Positions 7,095 through 55,406 of a stretch of 64,000 bases of DNA are shown here, one piece after another. The stretch lies in NCBI GenBank assembly GCA_028714855.1, contig JAQTLP010000003.1, positions 124,001-188,000 on the forward strand, given 5' to 3'. Below the pieces are notes generated by a model that worked only from the letters and a program-made list of their open reading frames with translations, was not told where the DNA came from and ran no database searches. The translations under genes were made by a program, and so were the position numbers. This DNA is from Phycisphaerae bacterium. Lineage in GTDB: Bacteria > Planctomycetota > Phycisphaerae > Sedimentisphaerales > Anaerobacaceae. Numbering within the stretch: the first letter of the stretch is position 1; every line of letters begins with the position of its first letter.

Positions 7095-8318
7095 ATGCAA
7101 TCTCATACCAAATTTATTTATCTCGTTATTTTAGTTTGCCTAATAAGCTTGCCATCTGCCTGTTTTGCCCAGGAAACCGTTAATCCGCCTCAGGAGTCTG
7201 TTTCAACCGATGAGCCGGAGATCAATGAGCTGTCTTTCCCCTACGTTGCCGAGATAACCGAGGATAATGTCAATATTCGCTCCGGGCCTGGTACGAATTA
7301 CTACCCCTGCGGCAAGCTTAACACCGGCGACAGAGTAAAGGTAGTCGCCAGCAAATACAGCTGGTCTCACATAGTTCCGCCGGTCAGCACTTTTTCCTGG
7401 ATTTCAAAACAGTACGTTAGCGTTGAGCCGGATAATTCCGGCACGGGTGTAGTTACAGGCAGTGCCGTTCGCGTCTATGCCGGCTCTGACATGCTCAAAC
7501 CGATGCACTCCACGACCGTTCAGCTGGAACTCAACAAGGGCGATAAAGTAGAGCTGATGGGCGAGGAGATGGACGATTATTATAAAATTGCTCCGCCGAC
7601 CGGCGCCTACCTTTGGGTGCTTACTCAGTATACCAAACCTATCGGAGCTGTCGGCGAGGTTGAGGTTATTGTTAAACCAAATACCGAGCCCGAAGAAGCA
7701 AAAATGGAGGCCGAAGCAGAAACCGAACTCGAAGCTAATACTGTCGCGGTTGTTCCCTCTGTTACTCCAATCGAGTCTCAAAAACTAAAGGAGTATTACG
7801 CGCTGGCAGATCAAATCAAGGCCGAGCAGACCAAGCCGATAGCCCAACAGAATTATACGGAGGTTAAGAAAGCGATGACTGAGCTAGCCGGTAATAAAGA
7901 GGCCGGCAAGGCCGCAAAATACGCGGAGTTTGCGCTTAAGCAGATAGAGCGCTGCGAACTGGCTGTGGCAGTGGACAAGGAAGTCCAGTCTCAGGATTCA
8001 CAATTACAGCAGACGAGTGAACAAATAGAAAATGCCCGCGACGCAGAGTTAGCGAAAGTTCCGGAACTTGGAGAATTTACAGTAGTAGGACAATTTCGAA
8101 CTTCAAAAATTTACGGTTCTGAGGAATCGCTGAAACACTACCGTATAATCGACGATTCCGGACAAACGATTTGTTACGCTTTGCCGGAAGGTTCAGCATC
8201 ACAGATAGATTTAAGCAAATTTGAGGGTCGAAAGGTCGGACTGATCGGGACAGTTGAGCCGCATCCGCAAACCAAAGGCGCCCTGATACGATTTACTCAA
8301 ATAACCGAACTGGAATAA
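7095..8318 (+). CDS. Secreted protein with two bacterial SH3 (SH3b) domains
   Basis: A 407-residue exported protein. A Sec signal peptide (about 1-26, ending near SACFAQE) is followed by two SH3b domains at about 48-112 (VNIRSGPGTNYYPCGKL, a typical opening) and about 117-178. A charged Glu/Ala-rich helical stretch (about 190-310) and a small beta-rich C-terminal domain (about 315-407) follow. SH3b domains commonly bind peptidoglycan or cell-surface peptides, so an envelope role is likely. No catalytic domain is visible. GGGAG lies about 8 nt before the ATG. It stands alone, convergent with the AsmA-like gene. Confidence 0.8.
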   Translation: MQSHTKFIYLVILVCLISLPSACFAQETVNPPQESVSTDEPEINELSFPYVAEITEDNVNIRSGPGTNYYPCGKLNTGDRVKVVASKYSWSHIVPPVSTFSWISKQYVSVEPDNSGTGVVTGSAVRVYAGSDMLKPMHSTTVQLELNKGDKVELMGEEMDDYYKIAPPTGAYLWVLTQYTKPIGAVGEVEVIVKPNTEPEEAKMEAEAETELEANTVAVVPSVTPIESQKLKEYYALADQIKAEQTKPIAQQNYTEVKKAMTELAGNKEAGKAAKYAEFALKQIERCELAVAVDKEVQSQDSQLQQTSEQIENARDAELAKVPELGEFTVVGQFRTSKIYGSEESLKHYRIIDDSGQTICYALPEGSASQIDLSKFEGRKVGLIGTVEPHPQTKGALIRFTQITELE

Positions 8319-41941: not shown

Positions 41942-42148
41942 CCGCGAATTAAGAATTTACAGGCGAAACAGGCCAACGGAGGGGTTATACGCATAGTTAG
42001 TAGGAAATGGTAAGAAATGCTAAAAAGAGAGAAAAAATGAAATAAATTGCAAAAAACAAGCAGCAATCCCTCGACTTTGCTCGGGACGAGATTTCAAATA
42101 ATTTCCAATCATCAAGATACAAAATTCAAAAATAAAAAATTGAGTGTG

Positions 42149-42207
42149 GGTTGCCTAAGTTAACAAGAAGAAAAGCAAAGATGCTAAATTAAAAATAGGC
42201 GGCTGTC
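42149..42207 (-). repeat. RHS boundary repeat A, copy 1 (array end)
   Basis: About 57 bp nearly identical to 46545-46603, including GGTTGCCTAA, TTAACAAGAAGAAAA, CAAAGATGCTAAATTAAAAA and GGCGGCTGTC. It lies just beyond the last membrane gene of the array. The spacer 41942-42227 holds no gene. Confidence 0.8.
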
Positions 42208-42227: not shown

Positions 42228-42419
42228 TTATTTTTTCTTCATTAACTGACCTTTTGCCCAAACTCTTGTACATTCACCAGCGAATATAAATATGAAAACT
42301 AATAAATAAGTATAACGAAACTGTGAATCTGATATATACAAACCGCCGATTATCCCTAATCCGAAAAATTTTACTGCCGCTGCTATACGACAGATTGTAT
42401 CTAATGTATCACTACTCAT
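42228..42419 (-). CDS. Small membrane protein, putative immunity partner of tip 7
   Basis: A 63-residue protein with two hydrophobic helices (AAAVKFFGLGIIGGLYIS and YTYLLVFIFIFAGE) and a basic tail (KGQLMKKK). ATG 42419 has AGGA 9 nt upstream. It follows the stop codon of the tip-7 cassette by 11 nt. No family was recognised; the role is inferred from the tip-then-membrane-protein pattern repeated seven times. Confidence 0.6.
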   Translation of the reverse strand: MSSDTLDTICRIAAAVKFFGLGIIGGLYISDSQFRYTYLLVFIFIFAGECTRVWAKGQLMKKK

Positions 42420-42430
42420 AAAAATATTTC

Positions 42431-43072
42431 CTAAATACCAATGGTACAAGCTATCGCACAAGCTATTACAATTGCCTTAATTTCTGGAGGGCTATCAGGC
42501 CCTAAGCTTTTGCGCGGGTCTAAAACAAAAGACATACATTTATTCACACAATCACTCAATGTATCACTCTCGCAATCCCATGTACCTTCACTAGCACAAA
42601 GCGCACTACAAGAAAGCGCTACACTAGCCATACAAGCTATGCATGCAACGCTTGGCCCCCCTGCTTTGATCTTTAATCCACTTGGATCAATCCAGTTAAC
42701 TGGATTATTTGTACAATATAGATATAGATTCATCGAATCTTTGTACCCTATCGGGTCTTTGCTAATAAACCTGCCGATACTTGGCTTGTAATACCTTGCT
42801 CTCAAAAAGACCAGACTGTCCGCTTCGGCAAATTGTTGCTCTCCAGTAAAGCCATAGGCGTTGGTGATAGAGCCAGAAGAGGCGATTACGCTGCCGAAGG
42901 AATCGTAAGTGTAGGAGGCAACAACTGCCTCATTGTCGGCTGTTAGTTGTCTCGTGCTACCTAAGCCATCGTAGAGATAAAACGAATTCGCATCTGCTCG
43001 CTTCATACTTATTAAGTCGTTTCCGTAGGTATAAACGGCCTGAATTATACCCGCGTCATCAGTTTCCATCAA
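42431..43072 (-). CDS. Displaced RHS core and Cys-rich C-terminal tip (tip 7)
   Basis: The first about 130 residues repeat the parental RHS core (YTYGNDLISMKRADANSFYL, DGLGSTRQLTADNEAVVASY, GFTGEQQF, LVFLRARYYKPSIGRFISKD, DPSGLK). The unique tip (about 80 residues) is Cys-rich: SVACIACMASVALSCSALC, WDCESDTLSDCVNKC, and a final hydrophobic AIVIACAIACTIGI. It lacks a signal peptide and RHS barrel repeats, so it is probably a silent donor cassette. Homology with the parent begins at GTTCAGGT, just before the ATG. Confidence 0.8.
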   Translation of the reverse strand: MMETDDAGIIQAVYTYGNDLISMKRADANSFYLYDGLGSTRQLTADNEAVVASYTYDSFGSVIASSGSITNAYGFTGEQQFAEADSLVFLRARYYKPSIGRFISKDPIGYKDSMNLYLYCTNNPVNWIDPSGLKIKAGGPSVACIACMASVALSCSALCASEGTWDCESDTLSDCVNKCMSFVLDPRKSLGPDSPPEIKAIVIACAIACTIGI

Positions 43073-43092
43073 TACCTGAACCTGCTTGACCG

Positions 43093-43389
43093 CTACACCC
43101 CATTATTCCATTTATCGTGGTTACTTCCTTTTTCGCGTAACCAATCCTGTAACATTTTACTAAGGATTGACGACGCCAATATAATTAGACCCACGATTAA
43201 AAAAGACGGCCACTTTTTCTCACCTTCACATAGGGTGTCCGCAACGAAAAAAAACTTGCTTCCGACATACAGAAGCAATAAATATATTAGAAGGAAACAC
43301 GCGGTTCCATGCAATGTTTGATATTTACTTCTCCATAATCGAGCGAACACTGAGTTATTTTGTTCTTTCCTTTTTATGGTAGTATCCAT
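43093..43389 (-). CDS. Small membrane protein, putative immunity partner of tip 6
   Basis: A 98-residue protein with two hydrophobic helices (TACFLLIYLLLLYVGSKFFF and PSFLIVGLIILASSIL) and charged ends. The frame extends to 43527 inside tip 6, but MDTTIKRKEQ at 43389, 20 nt after the tip-6 stop, is the sensible start. Family unknown. Confidence 0.6.
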   Translation of the reverse strand: MDTTIKRKEQNNSVFARLWRSKYQTLHGTACFLLIYLLLLYVGSKFFFVADTLCEGEKKWPSFLIVGLIILASSILSKMLQDWLREKGSNHDKWNNGV

Positions 43390-43409: not shown

Positions 43410-44015
43410 TTAAAGACAAGCAAGTATCAATCCTGCTACGTATCCTCCGACAACAGCTGCTAGGCAGCCAAAGAGGCACGGACCAACCCCCACGCCCCCT
43501 GTTACTGAACCACATCCAGCCACACAAGACACGTAAAGCGCCGCAACGCCAATGACCCCAATGACATCGACAACATCGCTACATTTTAGGGCATCCTTAA
43601 TACAACTCCAAGTACCAAGCCCTCGTGGATCCGCAAAGTTAATGGGGTTGTTGTGCACATATACATAAGGATGCAGAGATTGTGGTCGATGAATTAAATT
43701 CAAATGAGGTAAAATCCATCCTACATAACCTCCCATTTGTATTGGCACTAAAATCGGATCTCTGGAGATAAATCTGCCGATGGATGGGTTGTAATATCTG
43801 GCTCTTAAGAAAACTAAACTGTCTGCTTCGTTGAATTGCTGCTGGCCGGTGAAGCCATACGTATTAGCCACAGAGCCCACAGAGGAAATTACATTGCCAA
43901 AGGAATCGTAGGTGTAGGAGGCAACCACGGACTCATTGCTATCTGTGAGCTGTTTGACGGAGCCGAGACCATCGTAGAGATAAAACGAATTCGCATCGGC
44001 TTTGTTCATATTCAT
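43410..44015 (-). CDS. Displaced RHS core and C-terminal tip (tip 6)
   Basis: The core repeats NKADANSFYLYDGLGSVKQL, SFGNVISSVGSVANTYGF and SLVFLRARYYNPSIGRFISR, then a variant core end (DPILVPIQMGGYVGWILPHL, YVYVHNNPINFADPRG), shared only with tip 5. The tip (about 70 residues) is hydrophobic with cysteines: WSCIKDALKCSDVVDVIGVI, VSCVAGCGSVTGG, VGPCLFGCLAAVVGGYVAGL. No Shine-Dalgarno precedes the first ATG, so expression in place is doubtful. Confidence 0.78.
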   Translation of the reverse strand: MNMNKADANSFYLYDGLGSVKQLTDSNESVVASYTYDSFGNVISSVGSVANTYGFTGQQQFNEADSLVFLRARYYNPSIGRFISRDPILVPIQMGGYVGWILPHLNLIHRPQSLHPYVYVHNNPINFADPRGLGTWSCIKDALKCSDVVDVIGVIGVAALYVSCVAGCGSVTGGVGVGPCLFGCLAAVVGGYVAGLILACL

Positions 44016-44045
44016 AAAGGGAGAAAAAGCTTACTCTATGCTTTT

Positions 44046-44264
44046 TTATTGCCCTAGTAATTTGGGAAGAGTTAAAGCGTAATTAAAAAGCACGACAGCA
44101 ACTGCAAGCCACAAACCAGCACAAAAAACAATAACACCCCACCATCTAATAGTAGCTCTTGATGCTTGACTTATTTTATATTTTGTCTTGTCAGGCCAAA
44201 TTATTATGATAAATCCTAATATACAGTAAAATATAACCCATACTATGAGATAGATTGAAAACAT
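44046..44264 (-). CDS. Small membrane protein, putative immunity partner of tip 5
   Basis: A 72-residue protein with two hydrophobic helices (YLIVWVIFYCILGFIIIIW and WWGVIVFCAGLWLAVAVVLF). AAGG lies just before the ATG. A weak A/T-rich hairpin (AAAAAGC/GCTTTTT, 44024-44046) overlaps its stop codon and might terminate transcription. Unknown family. Confidence 0.6.
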   Translation of the reverse strand: MFSIYLIVWVIFYCILGFIIIIWPDKTKYKISQASRATIRWWGVIVFCAGLWLAVAVVLFNYALTLPKLLGQ

Positions 44265-44337: not shown

Positions 44338-45168
44338 TCACCCCATATACCAAGGTATTCCACACGCCTTTATCATGTCTTTAAATTCTTTTGTTTTAGT
44401 AGCTTTATCCCATGCATCTTTAGTGTCGCATGCATCTGCATCTCTACTTTTCTTTAACTCTTTTAACTTCCTCATAAATTTGGGAATTTTCGAAAAGCAG
44501 TTAATCGCGAGTATACCTCCTATTATTATAAATCCACCTATAATTATTACCCCACCGATACCGGCCACCATACCCTCAGGATCAATATAGTTTACCGGAT
44601 TATTACTGCAATACACATAAGAGTGTGTTTTTTGAGGACTCCCCGTCAAATGAGGCAAAAGCCAGAAGAAATTATCCCACACTTTTATTGGCGCAAGAAT
44701 CGGATCTCTTGAGATAAATCTTCCAATGGATGGGGCGTAATATCTGGCCCTTAAGAAAATAAGGTCATTCGCTTCGCCGAATTGCTGCTCTCCGGTAAAA
44801 CCATAAGGATTACCGGTCACATCAACCTCTATTGCTTTGGATACCGGAATTTGTCCTGTAAGCAGCAGTATAATAAATAAAGCGATTAATCCTTGTTTTC
44901 TCTTCCTGATTGCAACAACGCCGGCACCTAAACCAAAACACGCCAAAACCAAAACTCCTGATTCGTTGATTGATTTATTCCCTCCCGCAGCATTGGACGC
45001 CATCCCTCCACCAGCGGTTTGAGCGATTACGCTGCCGAAGGAATCGTAAGTGTAGGAGGCAACCACGGCCTCATTGTCAGCTGTTAATTGTCTCGTACTT
45101 CCCAACCCATCGTAGTTGTAGTAAGAATTTACATCAGCTCTTTTCATATAATGCCGGAAAAGCCCCAA
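44338..45168 (-). CDS. Displaced RHS core and tip (tip 5), with inserted sorting-signal-like segment
   Basis: The core starts KRADVNSYYNYDGLGSTRQL and continues to SFGSVIA, where an extra about 65-70 residues intervene (44812-45021) before PYGFTGEQQFGEANDLIFLR. The insert contains NESGVLVLACFGLGAGVVAI then RKRKQ, like an exosortase-type C-terminal signal, followed by a second hydrophobic stretch LIALFIILLLTGQIPVSKA. The core end is the DPI-LAPI variant shared with tip 6. The tip has a Gly-rich membrane helix (MVAGIGGVIIIGGFIIIGG) and a charged region with three Cys. It lacks a ribosome site. Confidence 0.75.
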   Translation of the reverse strand: MGLFRHYMKRADVNSYYNYDGLGSTRQLTADNEAVVASYTYDSFGSVIAQTAGGGMASNAAGGNKSINESGVLVLACFGLGAGVVAIRKRKQGLIALFIILLLTGQIPVSKAIEVDVTGNPYGFTGEQQFGEANDLIFLRARYYAPSIGRFISRDPILAPIKVWDNFFWLLPHLTGSPQKTHSYVYCSNNPVNYIDPEGMVAGIGGVIIIGGFIIIGGILAINCFSKIPKFMRKLKELKKSRDADACDTKDAWDKATKTKEFKDMIKACGIPWYMG

Positions 45169-45179
45169 ACCAATACAAT

Positions 45180-45210
45180 TTCAGCGAAATAAAACCGCTG
45201 AACCAGTACA
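45180..45210 (-). repeat. RHS boundary repeat B, copy 2 (hairpin)
   Basis: Between the tip-4 partner and tip 5. Contains AACCAGTACA and AAAACC(GC)TGA shared with 48944-48969; here a perfect 7-bp stem TTCAGCG (45180-45186) / CGCTGAA (45196-45202) is present. Confidence 0.65.
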
Positions 45211-45243: not shown

Positions 45244-45990
45244 TTAACTCTTTTGCTGTAAAGGACATGAGAAAAAGCATTTCGGAAAAAAGCTCTTCTT
45301 TTCCCTCAATTCTCCTATGTCTTTCTTCTCTTTTTCAAGTATCTGTTTCATATCTCTAACAGTTATTTGTAATTTTTCATCTTTAACAGCTTTTGCATAA
45401 TCATCTATAATCTCTACCCCTTCTCTTTTACATATAAGCCCAATTAATTGAGTGGTTTTGTCTGTGTAGTCACAGAACTGAACACCCATAGCAATGCATA
45501 CGCTACCCAAAAGGAGACATTGCTCACGGTTCACATCACTTTCTAAATATGATTTGGATAGAGAATGTAAACTCTTAGGAATCAAAATAAATGACTCTAA
45601 ATTATACTTTTTCCCATTTACATTAACATCTGTATCTACGGGGCCGACCTCAATGTCTAATGAATCTCCCTTAGCACCATCAACGATTAGTTCTAGAAAC
45701 CGGTCTATTCTGAAATCAGTCACATCTCTAATATTATTTTCATTTACTCCGTGCACGCTAAGCAACGAGATAGCTTCTGCGTAATTCTCAATAGAAGTTT
45801 TCTCGGAACTCAAAAAACCTTTATTTCGTGCAAACTGCTCCCATAAGGGATCCTGTGTAAAGTTTATTATATTTGAATTTCTCCTACTTACTGCTATTAC
45901 TGCGATCAGCAAGATTATTAGTACAATAATAGCTACAAAAATAATTCCTTTTTTCAGTGGAACCACGAATCTATACCGCATTTTAGACAT
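45244..45990 (-). CDS. Single-pass membrane protein, putative immunity partner of tip 4
   Basis: A 248-residue protein: short basic cytoplasmic end, one membrane helix (IIFVAIIVLIILLIAVIAV, about 15-33), then about 210 residues outside the cytoplasm. It differs from the other partners, which are small and multi-pass. ATG 45990 has AAGG 9 nt upstream and lies within the last 37 nt of tip 4, so translation may be coupled. No family recognised. Confidence 0.6.
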   Translation of the reverse strand: MSKMRYRFVVPLKKGIIFVAIIVLIILLIAVIAVSRRNSNIINFTQDPLWEQFARNKGFLSSEKTSIENYAEAISLLSVHGVNENNIRDVTDFRIDRFLELIVDGAKGDSLDIEVGPVDTDVNVNGKKYNLESFILIPKSLHSLSKSYLESDVNREQCLLLGSVCIAMGVQFCDYTDKTTQLIGLICKREGVEIIDDYAKAVKDEKLQITVRDMKQILEKEKKDIGELREKKSFFPKCFFSCPLQQKS

Positions 45991-46517
45991 TCTGGGGCAC
46001 CTTCTTTTATCATATCTATACATATTTTGATCCACCGTCTTCTTTTCAATTCACATTTAAGTTCCTTCTCGAGACTTCCGCATGATGGATCATCTGGTTC
46101 ATCTAAACATTTAGGTCTCATCTTCATACAAGCGTCATAATATACATGCATGTAGAAACCACACCAGAAACAAGTCCATAGTAGCTTGCCTGATGGGTCA
46201 ATATAATTTGTCGAATTATTCTTTACGTATGTATACAAGTTTAAACCATCAACGTATCCAATCGGGTCTCTGCTAATGAACCTGCCGATTTGCGGCGAAT
46301 AATATCTTGCTCTTAAATAGACCAGATTGTCTGCTTCGCTGAATTGCTGCTCTCCCGTGAAGCCGTAGGGGTTGGTGGCAGAGCCGGAGGAAGCGATTAA
46401 GCTGCCGAAGGAATCGTAAGTGTAGGAGGCAACAACTGCCTCATTGTTAGCTGTCAATTGTCTAGTGCTTCCTAAGCCATCGTGGAGATAAAACGAATTC
46501 GCATCCGCTCGCTTCAT
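45954..46517 (-). CDS. Displaced RHS core and Cys-rich tip (tip 4)
   Basis: Core KRADANSFYLHDGLGSTRQL, GFTGEQQFSEADNLVYLR, GRFISRDPIGYVDGLNLY. RHS homology extends upstream of the first ATG to about 46549 in the same frame (TYGDDLIS), where it meets boundary repeat A. The tip (about 80 residues) has paired cysteines: LLWTCFWCGFYMHVYYDACM, KCLDE, SCGSLEKELKCELKRRR, CIDMIKEGAPECLKC. No signal peptide; likely a silent donor. Confidence 0.78.
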   Translation of the reverse strand: MKRADANSFYLHDGLGSTRQLTANNEAVVASYTYDSFGSLIASSGSATNPYGFTGEQQFSEADNLVYLRARYYSPQIGRFISRDPIGYVDGLNLYTYVKNNSTNYIDPSGKLLWTCFWCGFYMHVYYDACMKMRPKCLDEPDDPSCGSLEKELKCELKRRRWIKICIDMIKEGAPECLKCGIDSWFH

Positions 46518-46544
46518 ACTGATTAAATCATCGCCATAAGTATA

Positions 46545-46603
46545 GGTTGCCTAATTTAACAAGAAGAAAATCAAAGATGCTAAATTAAAAAATGGTGGCT
46601 GTC
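46545..46603 (-). repeat. RHS boundary repeat A, copy 2
   Basis: Nearly identical to 42149-42207, placed between the tip-3 partner (ends 46616) and the tip-4 cassette. A third, partial copy of its core AAAATAGGCGGCTGT is at 47493-47507. Confidence 0.8.
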
Positions 46604-46615
46604 TGTAATTTCCCT

Positions 46616-46822
46616 CTATTCTCTGCGAGAAAGCTGTTTATCGCTTGTTTTATAAAACAACGCCAATGCAATAACCACCAAGCCGATGATTATACCTAAT
46701 ATAAATTTGCTTTCCCCCCTCCCCGAAAAACCAATATAGCTTAGTAAAACAACCATAATGCCGGTGAACAAACTGAGTCCCTGTTCCAACTTGCTTCTTC
46801 TTGGTCGCTTAATGTTCCACAT
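46616..46822 (-). CDS. Small membrane protein, putative immunity partner of tip 3
   Basis: A 68-residue protein with two hydrophobic helices (LSLFTGIMVVLLSYIGF and FILGIIIGLVVIALALFY) and a basic N-terminus (MWNIKRPRRSK). It follows the tip-3 stop by 14 nt. Unknown family. Confidence 0.6.
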   Translation of the reverse strand: MWNIKRPRRSKLEQGLSLFTGIMVVLLSYIGFSGRGESKFILGIIIGLVVIALALFYKTSDKQLSRRE

Positions 46823-46836
46823 TTTTGTTTATACCC

Positions 46837-47511
46837 TTAATCATCTTTAACAGTACAGAACAGATAGGCCCCCGTCGCCTCGCCGGCACAGTAAAGCGCC
46901 CATGCACCACCGCCTATACCAACAGCGGGGCAGAACATACCACCCGCACCCACTCCTCCCATTCCTAACGCGGCCCAAAGCGAACTACAGAGTGGTGTCA
47001 TTGCATCTCCCATACACGCGCTAAGAGATGGATAGCCCCGCCGTCTCCATCGTGGTGGTCCTGATGGTCTTTCCCTTCTTATGCCATATGGATCGCTGAA
47101 ATTGACAGGATCATTTTCTACATATGCATACAAATTTATTCCGCCCTCATACCCAATTGGGTCTTTTGAAATAAATCTGCCAATACTTGGCTTGTAATAC
47201 CTTGCTCTTAAAAAGACTAAACTGTCTGCTTCGTTAAATTGCTGCTCGCCGGTGAAGCCATAGGGATTAACAACTGAGCCCACAGAGGAAATTACATTAC
47301 CAAAAGCATCATAATCATACGAGGCAACCACGGACTCGTTGTCAGCGGCCAATTGTCTCGTGCTTCCTAAGCCATCGCAGAGATAATAAGAATTCGCATC
47401 AGCTCTATTCATACTGATTAAATCATCGCCATAAGTATAAGCAGCCAAGACTGAATTTGTATCAGTCGTTTCCATTAATACCTGAACAAGCGAAAATAGG
47501 CGGCTGTACAT
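46837..47511 (-). CDS. Displaced RHS core and tip (tip 3)
   Basis: Homology to the parental core starts at VQVLMET and runs through YTYGDDLISMNRADANSYYL, GFTGEQQFNEADSLVFLR and GRFISKDPIGYEGGINLYAY to DPYG. The tip (about 85 residues) has an Arg-rich start (RRERPSGPPRWRRRGYP) then a Cys- and Gly-rich hydrophobic half (SACMGDAMTPLCSSLWAALG, GGMFCPAVGIGGGAWALYCA). The first codons read through boundary repeat A core, so the first Met is probably fortuitous. Confidence 0.78.
   Translation of the reverse strand: MYSRLFSLVQVLMETTDTNSVLAAYTYGDDLISMNRADANSYYLCDGLGSTRQLAADNESVVASYDYDAFGNVISSVGSVVNPYGFTGEQQFNEADSLVFLRARYYKPSIGRFISKDPIGYEGGINLYAYVENDPVNFSDPYGIRRERPSGPPRWRRRGYPSLSACMGDAMTPLCSSLWAALGMGGVGAGGMFCPAVGIGGGAWALYCAGEATGAYLFCTVKDD
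47493..47507 (-). repeat. RHS boundary repeat A, partial copy 3
   Basis: AAAATAGGCGGCTGT, identical to part of 42192-42206, directly before the start of tip-3 homology. Confidence 0.65.
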
Positions 47512-47531
47512 AGTTTTTGCAATATTATCGT

Positions 47532-48206
47532 CTAATCAGTTATTACCTTCTGATCAGTATGATGTCCACGTATTACCAGATGCGTTGTGATTTTATAAGC
47601 TTGCCACGCGATCAAAAGTAATATTATGCTTGCTATCTTAGCACGAAGCGAATGGGTATGTCCCATCAGTTCCATAATTGCAACAGAAGAAGATACCCAT
47701 AAAATAGCAACCAGATATCCTATAAACTGTTTAACCAATGTTTCTCGATGTTTCTGCTCTAATGGTTTAGACAATTGAAACCATCTGCCTAGATTTTTGC
47801 GACACATCCAACATAAGCAACCGATGATTATTGCGGCTAACAAAATTACCAAATTCACCGGTATAACATAAGGCATCTCTGGCATAAGTAACCTGAGTTT
47901 TTCGAACATAGTGCCCAAAAGTAGGAAACCAAGAAGAAAAATAGTAATTAACCATATCCTGAGGGTGGTTTTTGCAGAACTCCGTAGCCATGAATAAATC
48001 GCGAGATATACGCAATAGACCCCAGTAAAAACCATCAATATTGTGACAATTAAAAAGGAAAACGAAAAAGCCTGCTTTGAATCAGTCATGTGCCAAATTG
48101 CGAATGCCATTGCAAAAACTATATACAAACCTATGCATCCTGACAGAATCGCCGAAATTCTTGCTAAAAATTTACTTGGTTCTGAAAATAGCTCTTTCCG
48201 TTTCAT
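47532..48206 (-). CDS. Polytopic membrane protein, putative immunity partner of tip 2
   Basis: A 224-residue protein with about six hydrophobic helices (for example ISAILSGCIGLYIVFAMAFA, LVILLAAIIIGCLCWMC). The frame begins at 48281 inside tip 2, but MKRKELFSEP at 48206 has AAAGGAG 7 nt upstream and starts 11 nt after the tip-2 stop. No transporter motif seen. Confidence 0.62.
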   Translation of the reverse strand: MKRKELFSEPSKFLARISAILSGCIGLYIVFAMAFAIWHMTDSKQAFSFSFLIVTILMVFTGVYCVYLAIYSWLRSSAKTTLRIWLITIFLLGFLLLGTMFEKLRLLMPEMPYVIPVNLVILLAAIIIGCLCWMCRKNLGRWFQLSKPLEQKHRETLVKQFIGYLVAILWVSSSVAIMELMGHTHSLRAKIASIILLLIAWQAYKITTHLVIRGHHTDQKVITD

Positions 48207-48217
48207 ATATGTCTCCT

Positions 48218-48910
48218 TTATGGACATGGACATGGAACAAGTGAGCAATCCATCAAATCGGCCGCCAGCCCAATTTCGCACCCTGCTTCGAAACTGAGCC
48301 CAGCGTCATAGGCAATAGCAAGAAGAGGACCCCATACCGCAACACATGTACCTTTACATATTTCTTTTGCTATTGGTGGCATCCGCTTACCACAATCACT
48401 TAGACAGTCTTTAAAACCATCTTCAGCCGCCTTTATAATGGCTTCTCCAATTGACATACATAAGGAAAATGTCACGTAAGCATCTTCAATACATTTATCT
48501 CGAGCCGGACATTTGCCTTTGGGATCTGTATAATTAACCGGGTTATTCCTCACATAAGCATATAAGTTTATACCACCTTCGTAGCCTATCGGATCCCTGC
48601 TCAAAAATCTTCCTGCGGCGGGGTTGTAGTATCTTGCCCTCAGATAAAGCAGTTCGCTTGAACTGTCAAACTGTTCGCCTGTGAAGCCATAGGCGTTGGT
48701 GATAGAACCAGAAGAAGCGATTAAGCTGCCGAAGGAGTCGTAGGTGTAGGAAGCGACCACTGTCTCACTATCATCTGTCAACTGTTTGACGGAGCCGAGG
48801 CCGTCATAAAGATAGAACGAATTTACATCCGCTCGCTTCATACTTATTAAGTCATTGCCGTAATTATAGACGGCCTGAACTGTGCCTGCGGTATCGGTTT
48901 CCATAACCAC
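48218..48910 (-). CDS. Displaced RHS core and Cys-rich tip (tip 2)
   Basis: The core (METDTAGTVQAVYNYGNDLI, DGLGSVKQLTDDSETVVASY, YLRARYYNPAAGRFLSRD, DPKG) is the most diverged copy; it has GEQFDSSSELL where others have GEQQF-EAD. The tip (about 100 residues) has paired Cys: KCPARDKCIEDAYVTFSLCM, DCLSDCGKRM, ICKGTCVAVWGPLLAIAYDA, CEIGLAADLMDCSLVPCPC. First cassette after the intact RHS gene and its partner. Confidence 0.8.
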   Translation of the reverse strand: MVMETDTAGTVQAVYNYGNDLISMKRADVNSFYLYDGLGSVKQLTDDSETVVASYTYDSFGSLIASSGSITNAYGFTGEQFDSSSELLYLRARYYNPAAGRFLSRDPIGYEGGINLYAYVRNNPVNYTDPKGKCPARDKCIEDAYVTFSLCMSIGEAIIKAAEDGFKDCLSDCGKRMPPIAKEICKGTCVAVWGPLLAIAYDAGLSFEAGCEIGLAADLMDCSLVPCPCP

Positions 48911-48943
48911 CTGAACAAATTGGTTTTATCCTGCTTATTTTAA

Positions 48944-49013: not shown

Positions 49014-49493
49014 CTAATTTGCTGCAGGAGTTGGTAGTATTTTCTTTCTTCTTCTATGCGCTATCAGCCAAGCTCCTAAAAAAGCGCATACCCAAAGTAA
49101 GGCCATCTGGAGAATCCAAGAAAATCCTAGGATAACTTGGAAATGGTTTTTGATGGACCATGGAATTCCGACAAGGATAGCTTTCGATAAGAGAATAATA
49201 GTAGCAATAGTTACTAACAGGTTAACTATTATTATTGTAATTATCCGATTACTTCTCGATATAAGACTTATGACAATAGCCGTTAAAAAACCCGAAATAC
49301 CAAAACCTAACACGTCTAATAAACAAGATATCGAAATGCACAGGTAGGGATAAGGAAGCCATTCAGTTGATATTAGAAGCTGAACCCTTGAAGAAAGAGT
49401 CAAAAACAAAGGAATAAATATACATATACACAATACGGAACCGATAATAATTGAAATAATTTCTGTAAATATATTTTTGTAACTATAACTCAT
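49014..49493 (-). CDS. Polytopic membrane protein, putative immunity partner of the expressed RHS tip
   Basis: A 159-residue protein with four hydrophobic helices (IISIIIGSVLCICIFIPLFL, LLDVLGFGISGFLTAIVISL, IIIVNLLVTIATIILLS, LQMALLWVCAFLGAWLIA) and a basic tail. ATG 49493 has AAGGA 9 nt upstream; a GTG at 49511 is less likely. It follows the RHS stop by 22 nt. Unknown family. Confidence 0.62.
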   Translation of the reverse strand: MSYSYKNIFTEIISIIIGSVLCICIFIPLFLTLSSRVQLLISTEWLPYPYLCISISCLLDVLGFGISGFLTAIVISLISRSNRIITIIIVNLLVTIATIILLSKAILVGIPWSIKNHFQVILGFSWILQMALLWVCAFLGAWLIAHRRRKKILPTPAAN

Positions 49494-49515: not shown

Positions 49516-51336
49516 CTAGAAGATGCCTGGCCCCATCGTTCCTTTCGATGATGCACAAAGGGAACGGCAAGCCCAATCCTTAGCCACACACTTAAACCAT
49601 CCTATTAGTCCGGGATTTGTAATTTTGCACTCCCAAAACTTTTGGTTGCAACAACCAATACAGGCCTGGGTATTAAAAGCGTCGGAAGCCATGCCTGGAC
49701 AACCTTCAGTTTCCTCAAGTTGTTCTTTCCATTTTTGACATGCACTCTTCATCTTCAAACCTGACGGGTCTACAAGGTTAACAGGATTATTGTTCACGTA
49801 TGCATACAAGTTTATACCACCATCATACCCAATCGGGTCTTTGGAGATAAACCTGCCAATACTTGGCTTGTAATATCTGGCTCTTAAGAATACTAAATCG
49901 TCTGCTTCACTGAACTGCTGCTCTCCCGTGAAACCGTAGGCGTTAGCTACAGAGCCAGAAGAAGCGATTACGCTGCCGAATGAATCATAGGTGTAGGAGG
50001 CAACCACTGCTTGATTGTCTGCTGTTAATTGCCGTGTGCTTCCCAAGCCATCATAATGATAGAACGAATTTACATCAGCTCTGTTCATACTGATTAAATC
50101 ATCGCCGTAGGTATAGACGGCCTGAACTGTGCCTGCGGTATCGGTTTCCATAAGCACCTGAGTAAGCGGCGACGCCACATCATTTATATATTTAGTTTTT
50201 ACGCCGTTTTGGGTTTTGCTTATTCTTACGCCCTCGCCATTATATTCATAAAGAGTATTGCCGGCCGGCTCGGATACGGACAAAAGGTGGTTTGCCCAAT
50301 CCCAGGAGCAGGTTGTAGTGCTGCCGGCGGCGGTTTTTGTCTGGAGGTTGCCGCAGCCGTCGTAAGCATAAGTAATAGTTGCGCCGCCGGCGGCTTCTGT
50401 CAATAGCTGATTATTATTGTTATAGGTGTAACTGGTTGTATTTCCATCCTTAACCATACTGGTCCTATTACCTACATCGTCATACTGGTAGGAAATAGAG
50501 TAGGCATTTGAGCCGGTGCGGGTTTCGGAAGTGAGCTGATAGATTTCGTCATACTCATAGGTTACAGATGAGCCGCTGTATTCTGATACTGATAATCTAT
50601 TGCCCGCATAGTCGTACGTATAGCTGAAAGAAGATAATACCGCCCCTGTTGAGTCTTTGTTTACCAAAGAGAGGAGCCAATTCCTCTGCGAATCATAGGC
50701 GTATAGCGTATAGCTGCCGTTGGGGTAGTCGGCCTGCGTCAGCTTGCCTAAAGAGTCATATCGGTAAGCTGTTAAACCGGCAGGAGCATTGACCTCTATG
50801 AGGCGATTAAGCTCGTCATAGGCATAGACGGTAATACCGCTGTTGGGGTCGGTCAATTGCGTTCTATTGCCGGCGGCGTCATATTGATAGTTTACGGTTT
50901 TATTGTTCGTGTCGGTAACGGAGGTCAATCTATTGAGATAATCGTAGGTGTAAGAGGTGGTGCCGGCTGGGTCTGTCATCGAGGTCCTGTTGCCCAGGCC
51001 ATCGTAAGTGTAGTTGATATAATGCCACTTGGAAACACACACGCCATTTTCACATAATTCCTCGGCGCCACAGCTTGATATGCAGTGTCCCTGACCATCA
51101 CATACTTCGCAGTTGGAAGACACGCATGTTGACTGGCAGCTGCCGTTTACACAGGTTCGACATTGGCTGGAGAAACAATAATTGTAACATACGCCACAAT
51201 GACAGTACTGACAAGGTCCGCACGGCGAACGGCACTCAAGACAAGGACAGCCCCAGGCAGAGGCGGAAAATACGAACAAGACCACAAGCGTAGATAAAAT
51301 AACGAAGCTTCTCGATAGTTTAAGATTATTTTTCAT
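49516..51336 (-). CDS. Secreted RHS protein, C half: Cys-rich domain, RHS repeats, core and tip 1
   Basis: A 606-residue exported protein. Signal peptide (about 1-29, ending ASAWG); about 20 cysteines in residues 30-110 in short spacings (CPCLECRSPCGPCQYCHC), like a small disulfide domain. YD repeats run from about 118 to 420, then the RHS core to NLVDPSGLK. The unique tip (about 75 residues) is Cys-rich: QACIGCCNQKFWECK, WFKCVAKDWACRSLCA. The start is MKNNLKLSRS, with GAGGAG 6 nt upstream, inside the end of the preceding RHS gene. The pair resembles TcB/TcC-type split RHS cocoons. The likely cleavage point is at DPSGL, as in other RHS cores. Confidence 0.88.
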   Translation of the reverse strand: MKNNLKLSRSFVILSTLVVLFVFSASAWGCPCLECRSPCGPCQYCHCGVCYNYCFSSQCRTCVNGSCQSTCVSSNCEVCDGQGHCISSCGAEELCENGVCVSKWHYINYTYDGLGNRTSMTDPAGTTSYTYDYLNRLTSVTDTNNKTVNYQYDAAGNRTQLTDPNSGITVYAYDELNRLIEVNAPAGLTAYRYDSLGKLTQADYPNGSYTLYAYDSQRNWLLSLVNKDSTGAVLSSFSYTYDYAGNRLSVSEYSGSSVTYEYDEIYQLTSETRTGSNAYSISYQYDDVGNRTSMVKDGNTTSYTYNNNNQLLTEAAGGATITYAYDGCGNLQTKTAAGSTTTCSWDWANHLLSVSEPAGNTLYEYNGEGVRISKTQNGVKTKYINDVASPLTQVLMETDTAGTVQAVYTYGDDLISMNRADVNSFYHYDGLGSTRQLTADNQAVVASYTYDSFGSVIASSGSVANAYGFTGEQQFSEADDLVFLRARYYKPSIGRFISKDPIGYDGGINLYAYVNNNPVNLVDPSGLKMKSACQKWKEQLEETEGCPGMASDAFNTQACIGCCNQKFWECKITNPGLIGWFKCVAKDWACRSLCASSKGTMGPGIF

Positions 51337-51346
51337 AAACAGCTCC

Positions 51347-54133
51347 TCAATTTTCATATTTTATCTGAGTTAAGCGGTTAATATTGTCGTAGGTGTAATA
51401 AGTGAAACGGCCTTTTCCGTCTCTTCTGGTCAGCATATTGCCTTCAGCATCGTAGGTGTAGGATTCGTATTCGCCAAGAGGATAGGTTACTTTAGTCAGC
51501 CGATTTAAGTTATCATAGGTATAGGTAGTGGTATTCCCCTTTGCATCTTTTAAGGATACGAGATTGCCCGCTCTATCATAAGTGTAGGAGGTATCATTTC
51601 CATTTGCATCTGTTACTTTGGTGAGCCGGTTTAACGGGTCATATTCGTAATCGGTTGTATTTCCATTCTCGTCCCTACGCTGACTTAAGCCGCAGCAACT
51701 GTAGGTGTATTGAATATAGTTCGAATCAGGATGGGTTATTTTTGTTACGCGGTTTAAATTATCATATTCATAGGAAGTAGCCCCATTTTCATTGGTCATC
51801 GATAATTTTCTGCCGATAACGTCGTAGGTGTAAGTAGTTATATTCCCGTTAGGGTCGGTAGTTTGGATGAGATTACCGTTGGGGTCATAATCGTAAAAAG
51901 CAGGATTTCCCAATGCATCTGTCATCGAGGCAACCAGGCCATTGCCATCATAAGTATAGGAAATGACAGAAAGAACAGTTTGGTTAGGGTCTTTCTCTGT
52001 AACAGACAGGAGATTATTAAAACTATCATATTCATAAGATGTGACTTTGCCTCTGGGGTCAGTGGCTGAAATCCGGTTATTTTTCGTATCGTAGGTGTAT
52101 GACCAGCTATTATTTAACGGGTCGGTTTTGGAGAGGAGATTATGCTTTGTGTCATAAGTATAGTAAGTTACACGCCCCATTTTATCTCTTACCTGTATTT
52201 TGTTACGATTATCATCGTAAGTATATAAAACATTATTTCCTGAATCATCTTCTATCTTTATGGTATCTCCATAATAAGGCCAGGGGCAGTAGTCGACGCA
52301 AGTATTCGAGTCTGGAGTGTAATAGGTAGAGTTTCCCCTTGGGTCTATCACATAGATGGGACCTCCCGCACCTCCGTTACATTGATATAAGTTATCGTTA
52401 GGGTCGGTTATCTCCGACACCCATATTTCTCCCAAACCAGCGTATTCAATCGTGTAGGTGCCCTTCGGCCCGGTGATAGAAGTAATATTGTTGTGATTGT
52501 CATAAGCGTAGGTAAATGTATTTCCCGCCATATCCACCACTTGGGCGAGATTGCCGTTGGCATCGTATGTAAACGTCGCTTCTCTGGCTAACGGGTCGTT
52601 TACCAGAGTGATTCTTCCTGCGGCGTCGGTTTGTATATCAGTAATTCTGCCTACCGCGTCAGTTATGGAAGTAAGGTTATCATTTGCGTCGTATTGGAAG
52701 CTCACTATATTTCCATTCGGGTCTTCCATAGCAAGAATTTTCCCGCCGTTCGCATGTGTATCATAATGATATTTTTCGTGGCTCTTCGTGAATTCCAAAG
52801 TAAAAGTATCATTCCCATTTTTGGTTAATTTTCTGCTTACCCCGACAGGCGGGTTGTAATATCCGCCTGAATAAGTAAAGGTATCATCGTGTCCTCCAGC
52901 TCTTCTAACAGTTACTGTGGTAAGATTCTCTGTTATTTTTGTCTCCAGATTAGAATGCCAGCTATTTCCAAAATATCCGGTATGCGAGAGGTCGGAATTG
53001 AAGGTGAGGGAAACTTTCACATCCTCTCCTATCGCAGTGATATATCCAATAGGAGTGTCTCTTACTATAAGAGCCAAAGCAGAGGTATCGACAGTAACTC
53101 GCGGGAAACCAAAACCATAAGAACAACAACCGCCGCCACCACCGCCAGCACCGGGGCCTGCTTCCGCTCTATCACAACATTCACCTTCACACTCTGTTAT
53201 CGGCTGTTCAGGACAACAATCGCAGGTCCCCAGAAGAATGTTACTCAACTCCTTTTTGGCAAGTTTGGCGAACTTCCTGCCAGAAGGAGTTGAGAGCGCC
53301 AAAACCTTATCTGTCCATATATCGGCCAATTCTCTTTTATAATAGGAAATCTCACCCAGAACAGGGTCGTAAACTATTACTTTCCCATCGATATCCTCTT
53401 CAATATCTTTTATCACTATCAGATGCGAAGGTTTTACTACCGCCACGAACGGCAACCGAAGGTTCTCTATTCTATCAAGCGGGCATTTTACCGCTTTAAG
53501 TTTCACATCTTCTTTTTTGAGGAATTTCAGGATTTCGGAAAGAGAAACAAGACCATCTTTTAAAGTTATAGACGAAGCAAGTTTCCGCCTGTCTAATTTT
53601 ACTCCTTGTGAGGTCAAATAGTAATTAATGGATTTTGTAGCACAGTTGGAGACAAGCTGCCGCTCACCTCCTGCTAAAGCAAGATTCACCCACTTTGCCC
53701 ACGTGGAGGCGTATTTTCTCTGCTGCCAGGTTTTTGCTTCTGACGCAGCCTTACGGAAATACTTTAAGGCTTTCTTGTAATCATTCAGTTTGTAGTAATT
53801 ACAACCTGTGCGGGCAGATGCTTCTGCAGAAACCCAGGTGTTGGGAAACAGTTCCGCTGCTTTTTGATAAGTCTTTGTGGATTTGGAGAAATCACGCTTA
53901 GATTTGTGGTATAAACCCATCCACAGGTAAGCGTCTCCGGCTTCAGGCGAAGCAGGAGATGTTTTTATAAGATTTTCGGCGGATTCGTACGCTTTCCGCC
54001 AGTCGCCTTTTTTTAATGCTTCTTTGAGCTCACAACCGCACTGCGAAGGAGGCAATGATTTTTCAGCAGCGTTCAGGGCAACCGGCAGATACTGCAACGA
54101 GAAAAATATTAAAATAATGGAAATTCTTTTCAT
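51347..54133 (-). CDS. Secreted RHS protein, N half: TPR, C39-like peptidase domain, RHS repeats
   Basis: A 928-residue exported protein. Signal peptide (1-22), TPR helices (about 35-155), then a C39-peptidase-like domain: SNCATKSINYYLTSQG (Cys164), PFVAVVKPSHLIVIKDI (His237) and VIVYDPVLGE (Asp256), a complete Cys-His-Asp set. A Cys/Gly-rich linker (CDCCPEQPITECEGECC, then a run of Gly) leads into the beta entry domain of RHS proteins (LTFNSDLSHTGYFGNSWHSN) and about 20 YD repeats up to the end. It has no core or variable tip; those are in the next gene, whose frame overlaps the stop codon. ATG 54133 is 22 nt after the TPR gene. Confidence 0.87.
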   Translation of the reverse strand: MKRISIILIFFSLQYLPVALNAAEKSLPPSQCGCELKEALKKGDWRKAYESAENLIKTSPASPEAGDAYLWMGLYHKSKRDFSKSTKTYQKAAELFPNTWVSAEASARTGCNYYKLNDYKKALKYFRKAASEAKTWQQRKYASTWAKWVNLALAGGERQLVSNCATKSINYYLTSQGVKLDRRKLASSITLKDGLVSLSEILKFLKKEDVKLKAVKCPLDRIENLRLPFVAVVKPSHLIVIKDIEEDIDGKVIVYDPVLGEISYYKRELADIWTDKVLALSTPSGRKFAKLAKKELSNILLGTCDCCPEQPITECEGECCDRAEAGPGAGGGGGGCCSYGFGFPRVTVDTSALALIVRDTPIGYITAIGEDVKVSLTFNSDLSHTGYFGNSWHSNLETKITENLTTVTVRRAGGHDDTFTYSGGYYNPPVGVSRKLTKNGNDTFTLEFTKSHEKYHYDTHANGGKILAMEDPNGNIVSFQYDANDNLTSITDAVGRITDIQTDAAGRITLVNDPLAREATFTYDANGNLAQVVDMAGNTFTYAYDNHNNITSITGPKGTYTIEYAGLGEIWVSEITDPNDNLYQCNGGAGGPIYVIDPRGNSTYYTPDSNTCVDYCPWPYYGDTIKIEDDSGNNVLYTYDDNRNKIQVRDKMGRVTYYTYDTKHNLLSKTDPLNNSWSYTYDTKNNRISATDPRGKVTSYEYDSFNNLLSVTEKDPNQTVLSVISYTYDGNGLVASMTDALGNPAFYDYDPNGNLIQTTDPNGNITTYTYDVIGRKLSMTNENGATSYEYDNLNRVTKITHPDSNYIQYTYSCCGLSQRRDENGNTTDYEYDPLNRLTKVTDANGNDTSYTYDRAGNLVSLKDAKGNTTTYTYDNLNRLTKVTYPLGEYESYTYDAEGNMLTRRDGKGRFTYYTYDNINRLTQIKYEN

Positions 54134-54155: not shown

Positions 54156-55406
54156 TTACTTCTCATTCTTACTGTTTTCCATTTTAATACGATATTCTAC
54201 AATAAGCAGCTGAGCCTGCTGGGCATCTTCAAAATCAGGCCAGTTATTGATAATCTTTTGGAAGTAATCTATTCCTTTCTGATATTCCCCCAATTCCTGG
54301 GCATAACAAACCGCCGAAGAAAAGTAGGCATTCGGAACAACCTCCGAATCGGGGAATTCAAAAATTAAACGTTCCCAAACTTCTATAGCTTTTCTATAAA
54401 ATAGTTTTTCTCCGTTGGCATCTCCTTCAAGATTCATCAGGCGAGCTTTGGCGTAATATGACAGCCCTATATTTCGAACCACATTTGCCACATCCGGATG
54501 TCCGGCGAAATCCACAATTAGTCTGTCAATGGCCTCTTCAGCACTATCGTATCCTCCTGACATTATTAGAGACTGAATGTTCGCCATTGAGAGGCCTAAC
54601 TTTGCCCTGTCAACGGCAGACGAATTATCAGGATAGTTCTGTATTATCCACTGATAGAGAATATTCGCTTTTTCATACTTACCCGAACGGGCATATCTGT
54701 CTGCAATCCAGTAAATTGTATCATGCAAATCCGGATGGTCCTTGAAATCAGCAACAAGCTTAGCAAAAGCTTTTTCGGCACCATCGTAGTCCTGCGACAC
54801 GATGAGAGACTGGACGGCTGCCCTTGAAACACCTAACTTTGCTTTAACTGCGAATGGGCTATCAGGATAGTTCTGTATTATTTGCTGATATGTGCTTTTT
54901 TCCTCTTCGTATCCGTCCCAATACCCAAATCCTCGTCCGATCCAGTAAAGCTCTTCCGGCAAATCCGGGTGGCTTGAGAAATTGGCGACAAGCTCCTCGA
55001 GGGCCTCTTTGGCCATATTGAAGTCCCTGGCGACAATAAGAGAGAGGACTTTCACCTTCGCGATACCTAAATTTGCCTTACTAACGATGGAGCTGTCAGG
55101 ATAGTTCTGTATTATTTGCTGATAGAGGCCTTTCGCACATTCATATTTATCCGATTTATCCGACCATCGATATCTTTCCGCTATCTCGTAAAGGGCCTGT
55201 GGCAGGGCCTGGTTTTTGGGGAAACCGGCGAGCAATTTCTGAATTTGCGCCTGGGCCTGGGTGTAATTGCCCCCATTGACAAGTGAAACGATATTTGACT
55301 TTGCCTGCTCAAGCCTATCCGATGCATCGACGGGGACTTTGGCTACGGCTACAGATACCAGCAAGATAATAAAAGCTAAGGCTATGGAATGGCTTTTTTT
55401 AGACAT
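54156..55406 (-). CDS. Exported tandem-TPR protein, first gene of the RHS operon
   Basis: A 416-residue protein with a signal peptide (about 1-22, LAFIILLVSVAVA) and four or five repeats of about 75 residues, each containing QQIIQNYPDSS-(x)-VSKANLGIA-like units. This is the TPR pattern of YbgF/BamD-type periplasmic scaffolds. The near identity of repeat boundaries (YQQIIQNYPDS at three places) points to recent internal duplication. A periplasmic adaptor or chaperone for the RHS pair is plausible. AAGG lies 8 nt before the ATG; a 23-codon leader frame overlaps its start. Confidence 0.8.
   Translation of the reverse strand: MSKKSHSIALAFIILLVSVAVAKVPVDASDRLEQAKSNIVSLVNGGNYTQAQAQIQKLLAGFPKNQALPQALYEIAERYRWSDKSDKYECAKGLYQQIIQNYPDSSIVSKANLGIAKVKVLSLIVARDFNMAKEALEELVANFSSHPDLPEELYWIGRGFGYWDGYEEEKSTYQQIIQNYPDSPFAVKAKLGVSRAAVQSLIVSQDYDGAEKAFAKLVADFKDHPDLHDTIYWIADRYARSGKYEKANILYQWIIQNYPDNSSAVDRAKLGLSMANIQSLIMSGGYDSAEEAIDRLIVDFAGHPDVANVVRNIGLSYYAKARLMNLEGDANGEKLFYRKAIEVWERLIFEFPDSEVVPNAYFSSAVCYAQELGEYQKGIDYFQKIINNWPDFEDAQQAQLLIVEYRIKMENSKNEK

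What the first reader, a model, noticed from the sequence alone, without database searches (positions are those of the whole stretch)
49516..54133. RHS protein split into two coupled secreted halves, TcB/TcC-like, with a C39-like peptidase domain
The first gene has a signal peptide, TPR helices, a Cys164-His237-Asp256 C39-like domain and YD repeats but no RHS core. The second has its own signal peptide, a roughly 20-Cys domain, YD repeats, the RHS core and tip. The second gene's Shine-Dalgarno (GAGGAG) lies at the end of the first. Tc toxins also split the RHS cocoon into B and C proteins, but those lack signal peptides and peptidase domains. The peptidase may process the shell or effector.
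Basis: partly seen in the sequence, partly recalled or inferred. Interest (0 to 1): 0.72.

Follow-up and report, generated by a model that had tools for sequence, protein, structure and literature searches.

The report
Two-part secreted RHS toxin shell
An uncultured bacterium appears to build one toxin-holding protein shell from two separately exported halves, next to a row of spare, small, cysteine-rich toxin ends; it is a new twist on a known family of bacterial weapons.

Summary
Two intact minus-strand genes: the first (51347-54133) has TPRs, a C39 domain with C164/H237/D256 and YD repeats but no RHS core; the second (49516-51336) starts from a Shine-Dalgarno overlapping the first gene's stop and has 19 Cys in 71 residues, YD repeats, the core and a short tip. 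In two unsplit homologues, the best-scoring included, the halves abut (+3, -6 residues); in 5 of 9 they overlap. On three of eight solved shells they map to successive halves of one barrel. Most likely reading: one cocoon cut between YD repeats, each half with its own signal-like N-terminus. Co-folding was not possible. TcB/TcC is only an analogy. No other split pair was seen, and no other C39-RHS fusion in 161 genomes of the order. Similar Cys-rich cassettes occur in MAGs labelled Omnitrophota and Ratteibacteria. The role of C39 is unproven; the core keeps its own aspartate pair. New variant of a known kind.

The parts
51347..54133 (-). Gene 1 (P0001, 928 aa): signal-like N-terminus, TPR, C39-like peptidase domain (C164/H237/D256), Cys cluster 304-337 and Gly run 330-335, N-terminal shell part (DUF6531 match), first half of the YD strip; no RHS core
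49516..51336 (-). Gene 2 (P0002 from its likely ATG, 606 aa; ORF open from 51357): signal-like N-terminus, 19-Cys domain, second part of the YD strip, RHS core with D507/D530, 80-aa Cys-rich tip
51336..51357 (-). Junction: TGA stop of gene 1 overlaps the GAGGAG Shine-Dalgarno of gene 2; falls between two adjacent YD units of unsplit homologues
49014..49493 (-). Candidate immunity gene for gene 2's tip (159 aa, 4 hydrophobic segments, ATG with SD)
   Evidence: no family match
48218..48925 (-). Orphan cassette A: RHS core + 98-aa tip with 11 Cys; followed by a 6-TM ORF (47532-48206)
46837..47535 (-). Orphan cassette B: RHS core + 81-aa tip with 5 Cys; followed by a 2-TM ORF (46616-46822)
45954..46550 (-). 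Orphan cassette C: RHS core + 77-aa tip with 9 Cys; followed by a 1-TM ORF (45244-45990)
44338..45180 (-). Orphan cassette D: core interrupted by an insertion + 77-aa Gly-rich hydrophobic tip with 3 Cys; followed by a 2-TM ORF (44046-44264)
43410..44030 (-). Orphan cassette E: RHS core + 69-aa hydrophobic tip with 7 Cys; followed by a 2-TM ORF (43093 to about 43389)
42431..43102 (-). Orphan cassette F: RHS core + 81-aa hydrophobic tip with 9 Cys; followed by a small 1-TM ORF (42228-42419)
54156..55406 (-). Upstream secreted-looking TPR protein (P0003, 416 aa), 22 bp before gene 1, possibly the same operon; role unknown

Best explanation
This is a polymorphic toxin-immunity locus whose RHS shell is made of two proteins. 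Gene 1 gives the N-terminal shell part and the first half of the YD strip; gene 2 gives the second part, the core and the toxin tip. Each half has its own Sec-type signal-like N-terminus and Cys-rich segment, so the halves would be exported unfolded and close into one cocoon outside the cytoplasm (inferred). The core would then cut itself at the D507/D530 site to free the tip inside the cocoon (inferred from the known family). The tips of this locus are short and mostly Cys-rich or hydrophobic, each followed by a membrane-protein ORF, so they most likely act on the envelope or membrane of rival bacteria, with membrane-borne immunity (inferred). The six orphan cassettes share only the core with gene 2, so they look like a store of spare tips that recombination could move in (inferred). 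The C39-like domain, with its triad in place, may trim the shell, for example at the Gly run 330-335 that separates it from the cocoon (a guess). Shown: gene layout, domains, junction position in two homologues, cassette array and tip statistics. Not shown: pairing, export, toxicity, immunity, proteolysis.
For: Halves complement each other: gene 1 has the N-terminal shell part and no core, gene 2 the core. G013 (best summed score): gene 1's cocoon part aligns to 86-762 and gene 2's to 766-1184 of one 1390-aa chain; G021: 78-769 and 764-1187. On Rhs1 (7pq5) gene 1 residues 457-928 map to 429-846 and gene 2 model residues 126-427 to 851-1179; PMC8636562 (passages) puts the barrel strip at 420-1262. 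Combined shell about 989 residues against about 1099-1110 in G013/G021. Six cassettes with Rhs_assc_core downstream; core DNA 75-85% identical to gene 2's; core dN/dS 0.04-0.23 in the 18 of 21 pairs that could be computed. Of 14 tips with this core subtype, all are 69-118 aa with 3.9-11.7% Cys and 13 of 14 are followed by a TM ORF, against 11 of 22 for other cores. Orphan RHS toxin/immunity modules are experimentally established elsewhere (PMC3150448, section 11 read).
Against: YD repeats are self-similar: 5 of 9 unsplit homologues (G040, second by summed score, among them), and Tse5, RhsP, RhsA, the Advenella Rhs and TLP among 8 solved shells, give overlapping rather than abutting placements. 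AF2 models are poor (pLDDT 60.6 and 52.6) and the chains could not be co-folded. No other genome shows the split, so there is no conservation evidence for it. No toxin or immunity family matched any tip or membrane ORF of the window above cut-off. TM calls come from a simple hydropathy window, signal peptides from inspection. Half of the tips in the 14-tip statistic are from this window.
Confidence: 0.6

Rival explanations
1. The two proteins work apart: gene 2 is a shortened but self-sufficient secreted RHS toxin, and gene 1 is a separate secreted accessory (peptidase plus YD stalk).
For: Each has its own signal-like N-terminus and Cys-rich segment; the repeat registers overlap in 5 of 9 homologues.
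Against: Gene 2's shell part is 425 residues and gene 1's 564, each about half of the 1099-1110 in G013/G021; gene 1 lacks the core and gene 2 the N-terminal shell part. Coupled start.
Confidence: 0.18
2. Not a weapon: a secreted surface protein with a variable end (adhesion or antigenic variation), the cassettes being a store of surface variants.
For: Cys-rich secreted modules occur elsewhere in this genome (C3:231785, 49% identity over query residues 31-83); no toxin family was matched.
Against: A membrane-protein ORF next to each of 7 tips is the toxin-immunity layout; cassettes of this subtype in other genomes also mostly carry a TM ORF next to the tip; one Omnitrophota tip has a weak phospholipase A2 match (PF05826, E 0.006, below cut-off).
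Confidence: 0.14
3. A broken locus: an ordinary single-chain RHS gene damaged by an insertion, now drifting.
For: No relative with the split was found; G056's unsplit protein carries an extra domain at about the same place, so the joint tolerates insertions.
Against: Both frames are intact and the insert brings a stop, a Shine-Dalgarno, a start, a signal-like stretch and a Cys-rich domain in order; the cut falls between YD units.
Confidence: 0.08

Closest known systems
Sec-exported single-chain RHS/YD polymorphic toxins (unsplit homologues G013, G021, G008, G056; WapA-type, recalled)
   Same: Signal-like N-terminus, shell, RHS core, variable tip
   Different: One chain there, two chains here; no C39 or 19-Cys domain is apparent in the unsplit sequences read (by eye)
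TcB/TcC (ABC toxin) heterodimeric YD shell
   Same: One shell from two chains, the cargo on the second (PMC6425310, passages)
   Different: No SpvB or propeller found in gene 1; two signal-like N-termini, C39 and Cys domains; TcC has more residues before the shared part (gene 2 241-534 aligns to TccC2 343-664), so the cut is probably elsewhere; TcA search inconclusive
Orphan rhs-CT/rhsI modules
   Same: Core-led tip plus small ORF arrays downstream of a main rhs gene (PMC3150448)
   Different: Here very short, mostly Cys-rich tips with membrane-protein partners, and a two-chain main gene
RHS toxins with a papain-fold domain after the signal peptide (inactive transglutaminase; PMC3482391, passages)
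   Same: Papain-like fold between signal peptide and RHS repeats
   Different: Here a C39-type domain with the C/H/D triad present
Bacterial teneurin-like proteins (PMC13018210, passages)
   Same: Some have predicted signal peptides; shell with small C-terminal toxin and immunity gene
   Different: Single chain with FN-plug and NHL domains

Membership tests
RHS/YD polymorphic toxin | YD/RHS repeats | tested here: met
   PF05593 E 4e-83 and 7e-41
RHS/YD polymorphic toxin | RHS-associated core ending in a DPxG-type motif before a variable tip | tested here: met
   TIGR03696 E 4e-25 in gene 2; tips differ between cassettes after DPxG
RHS/YD polymorphic toxin | Aspartate pair for core self-cleavage | tested here: met
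   D507 and D530, 23 apart (D530 invariant and D507 nearly so); Tse15's cleavage mutant is D1369N/D1391N, 22 apart (entry title). Presence only, activity not tested
RHS/YD polymorphic toxin | Cognate immunity gene after the tip | tested here: inconclusive
   7 of 7 window tips are followed by a TM ORF; no family match, function untested
TcB/TcC | SpvB domain and propeller in the B protein | tested here: not met
   No SpvB or propeller family among Pfam matches of gene 1 at E <= 0.1, apart from a weak WDR55 match (E 0.07) lying on YD repeats
TcB/TcC | TcA partner in the genome | tested here: inconclusive
   PF18276 no match, but the control rang nowhere
TcB/TcC | One shell closed by two chains | tested here: inconclusive
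   Register evidence for and against; co-folding not possible
T6SS Rhs effector | T6SS in the genome | tested here: not met
   PF05943 (VipB sheath) no match in the own genome (98% complete); control rang in E. coli
Peptidase C39 | Cys/His/Asp triad and domain match | tested here: met
   PF03412 44.3 bits; C164, H237, D256
Peptidase C39 | Cleavage after double glycine | not testable with these tools
   A Gly run lies at 330-335

The most novel reading that the evidence does not exclude
A shell exported as two separate Sec substrates that closes only outside the cytoplasm, possibly fixed by disulfides between the two Cys-rich segments, around a very small disulfide-rich, bacteriocin-like tip; its C39 domain matures the shell at a glycine linker, and a horizontally shared bank of mini-toxin cassettes with membrane immunity, seen in MAGs of at least two further phylum labels, feeds it. 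This would be an RHS machine built for assembly and loading outside the cytoplasm.
Probability: 0.22. Interest if true: 0.75.

Novelty: new variant of a known kind. Interest (0 to 1): 0.52.

Why it matters
It would be a second, apparently independent way of making a two-chain YD shell, and one where both chains carry export signals, which makes it testable whether such cocoons can close after export. The Cys-rich mini-tips with membrane-protein partners also mark a little-described set of candidate small toxins and immunity proteins in uncultured bacteria.

Tried and rejected
Sequencing frameshift: rejected, because a signal-like stretch and Cys domain sit between the halves. T6SS delivery: no sheath gene. 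Tc membership: see table. Defence system: PADLOC gave nothing for 6 proteins. Homologues of the C39-RHS fusion (own genome included in each n): none other among 61 genomes, 392 of the phylum (no match covers both the C39 and the cocoon part) or 161 of the order (the 15 other genomes match only the C39 part, in frames of 448-762 aa); genome-contig scan with the first 480 aa found none. Other split pairs: none in 47 loci (L100-L146) besides the window, but many of these are contig fragments or cassette regions, so few complete main genes were tested (complete chains above 1000 aa with a core in the table: L105, L106, L107, L108, L111, L115, L117, L122, L123, L133). AF2 plus Foldseek: global models poor, TM-scores at most 0.30 with rmsd mostly 16-40, so they neither show nor exclude closure. 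PLA2 reading of the L119 tip: only a sub-threshold Pfam match and no solved relative. Promoter and terminator scan: promoter-like sites at chance level (30 against 33.7), terminator-like 16 against 11.4 +/- 3.7. Plasmid search with gene 2: distant cyanobacterial and other RHS genes only, below 60% identity. Literature: no paper held all of Rhs / peptidase C39 / YD repeat; one held C39 and RHS repeat, where the C39-like domain passage seen describes toxin domains; the listings showed no split RHS shell with two signal peptides in the titles or abstract starts. Rows dropped: the statistic used 40 distinct tips; core ORFs that were open at the 3' end, lacked the GRF-type or DPxG motif, or had tips under 20 aa were left out (among them the cassettes of L112-L114); its 'other' group includes Cys-rich tips of L103, L104, L125, L126, L132 and L141, so high Cys content is not exclusive to this core subtype, only the combination of short and Cys-rich is typical.

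Full report
Observation. Two minus-strand genes were reported and are present. Gene 1 (window 51347-54133, 928 aa) has a signal-like N-terminus, TPRs (38-133), a Peptidase_C39 domain (163-281, E 2e-11), a Cys cluster (8 Cys, 304-337) with a Gly run, a DUF6531 match and 12 RHS repeats, and no RHS core. Gene 2 starts most likely at 51336: its Shine-Dalgarno GAGGAG overlaps gene 1's stop. It has 19 Cys in residues 37-107, 9 RHS repeats, Rhs_assc_core 457-534 and an 80-aa tip with 9 Cys.

One shell or two? Eight unsplit RHS proteins from the same order and one viral-contig protein were compared. In G013, which has the highest summed score, the end of gene 1 and the start of gene 2's YD part abut (+3 residues); in G021, third by score, they do too (-6). 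G056b gives +24. G056 gives +172, where an extra domain is inserted. In 5 of 9, G040 (second by score) among them, the placements overlap by 103-277 residues, because the repeats are self-similar (BLAST registers, multiple alignment). AF2 models were made with the alignments allowed (pLDDT 60.6 for gene 2, 52.6 for gene 1). Aligned to solved shells, gene 1's strip maps to 429-846 and gene 2's to 851-1179 of Rhs1 (7pq5), to 498-916 and 948-1269 of the S. bongori Rhs (8qjc), and to 482-899 and 883-1206 of Tse15 (8uy4), but they overlap on Tse5, RhsP, RhsA, the Advenella Rhs and the teneurin-like protein (rmsd is high, 7-33). So three of eight distinct proteins give successive halves. Together with gene 1 lacking the core and gene 2 lacking the N-terminal shell part, I take one two-chain shell as most likely, not as shown.

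What lies downstream. Between 42431 and 48925 lie six more open frames with the RHS core and a different short tip each. DNA similarity to gene 2 covers only the core (within gene 2 residues 399-527; 75-85% identity); the cores keep the reading frame with dN/dS 0.04-0.23 in the 18 of 21 pairs computable. By inspection no start codon with a good Shine-Dalgarno precedes these cores, so they look like silent cassettes. Each of the seven tips (gene 2 included) is followed by an ORF with 1-6 hydrophobic segments. This is the orphan rhs-CT/rhsI layout described in PMC3150448 (section 11 read).

The tips. For the core subtype with YGF[TR]G[EQ], 14 distinct tips (7 window, 4 G054, 2 Omnitrophota MAG L119, 1 Ratteibacteria MAG L120) are 69-118 aa with 3.9-11.7% Cys, against 83-253 aa and 0-10.1% for 26 tips of other cores (Mann-Whitney p 4e-5 for Cys fraction, 1e-6 for length); 13 of 14 against 11 of 22 are followed by an ORF with a TM segment (Fisher p 0.008). 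These rows are not independent, the subtype motif was chosen after seeing the tips, and high Cys occurs in some other tips too. Short, Cys-rich or Gly-rich hydrophobic peptides with membrane-bound partners suggest envelope targets; this is inference.

Distribution. The two congeners held (G001, G002) have no RHS core match at all. In G001, rpoN is followed by the ArsP gene about 1.1 kb later, while here 16.6 kb including this locus, pyruvate kinase and a NAD-binding gene lie between; in G001 the latter two are on another contig. So the locus is absent from that site in one congener; the direction of change is not shown. No other C39-RHS fusion was found in 161 genomes of the order, in 61 relatives or in 392 genomes of the phylum, own genome counted in each. 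Cassettes with related cores occur in named MAGs labelled Planctomycetota, Omnitrophota and Ratteibacteria. The window's own phylum is not named; Planctomycetota is likely because G054 (same order) carries a core nearly identical over about 40 residues to that of the Planctomycetota MAG L121 (sequences).

The C39 domain. Triad present. Other C39 proteins of about 600 aa with the same NCA motif occur in the order. In PMC3482391 (passages) inactive transglutaminases, also papain-fold, sit between signal peptide and RHS repeats; here the triad is kept. Trimming at the Gly run 330-335 is a guess. Tip release need not involve it: D507 and D530 have nearly the spacing of the Tse15 cleavage pair (entry title).

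The 19-Cys domain is similar to a Cys-rich protein elsewhere in the genome (C3:231785-231943, 49% over residues 31-83 of the query), so gene 2's N-terminus may have been taken from such a protein. Combined with the joint in G056 that carries an extra domain, this suggests how the split arose: a signal peptide and Cys module inserted between two YD units (inference).

Tc comparison. PMC6425310 (passages) says TcB and TcC form one shell with the C-terminus of TcB next to the N-terminus of TcC, and that natural fusions exist. The present pair works like that in outline, but lacks SpvB and propeller, so it is not filed as Tc.

Verdict. Observation confirmed; two halves of one shell probable; Tc only an analogy; locus type is a polymorphic toxin array, new variant of a known kind.

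Noticed in passing
window 42143-42207 and 46539-46603: A 65-bp non-coding repeat (89% identical) flanks cassettes C to F.
   Followed up: partly
window 44805-45022 (cassette D): The core of cassette D is interrupted by an in-frame insertion that resembles a C-terminal sorting anchor (PEP-CTERM-like, from recall).
   Followed up: no
L125:2873-3625, 5899-6552, 7111-7725; L126:5890-6648: IMG/VR contigs with mini RHS genes: a signal-like N-terminus directly followed by the last part of the core (MYDPGLGRF...) and a Cys-rich tail, with no shell.
   Followed up: no
L012, L016, L021, L025 and the frames near 600 aa: A family of secreted-looking proteins of about 600 aa in this order with a C39 domain (NCA motif) followed by a Cys-rich C-terminus, not RHS.
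   Followed up: partly
L112/L113 (G044 C1:1838000-1872000): An array of ten RHS core+tip frames in a single-contig genome of the same order, several starting with a similar lead sequence.
   Followed up: no
L119:9992-11989: An Omnitrophota MAG contig with two orphan Cys-rich core+tip cassettes and no main RHS gene in the 21.6 kb held; the second tip has a weak phospholipase A2 match and is followed by a 6-TM ORF.
   Followed up: partly
G000:C7:109367-113469 and G000:C14:36405-36650: Four further RHS cores of another subtype elsewhere in the same genome.
   Followed up: partly
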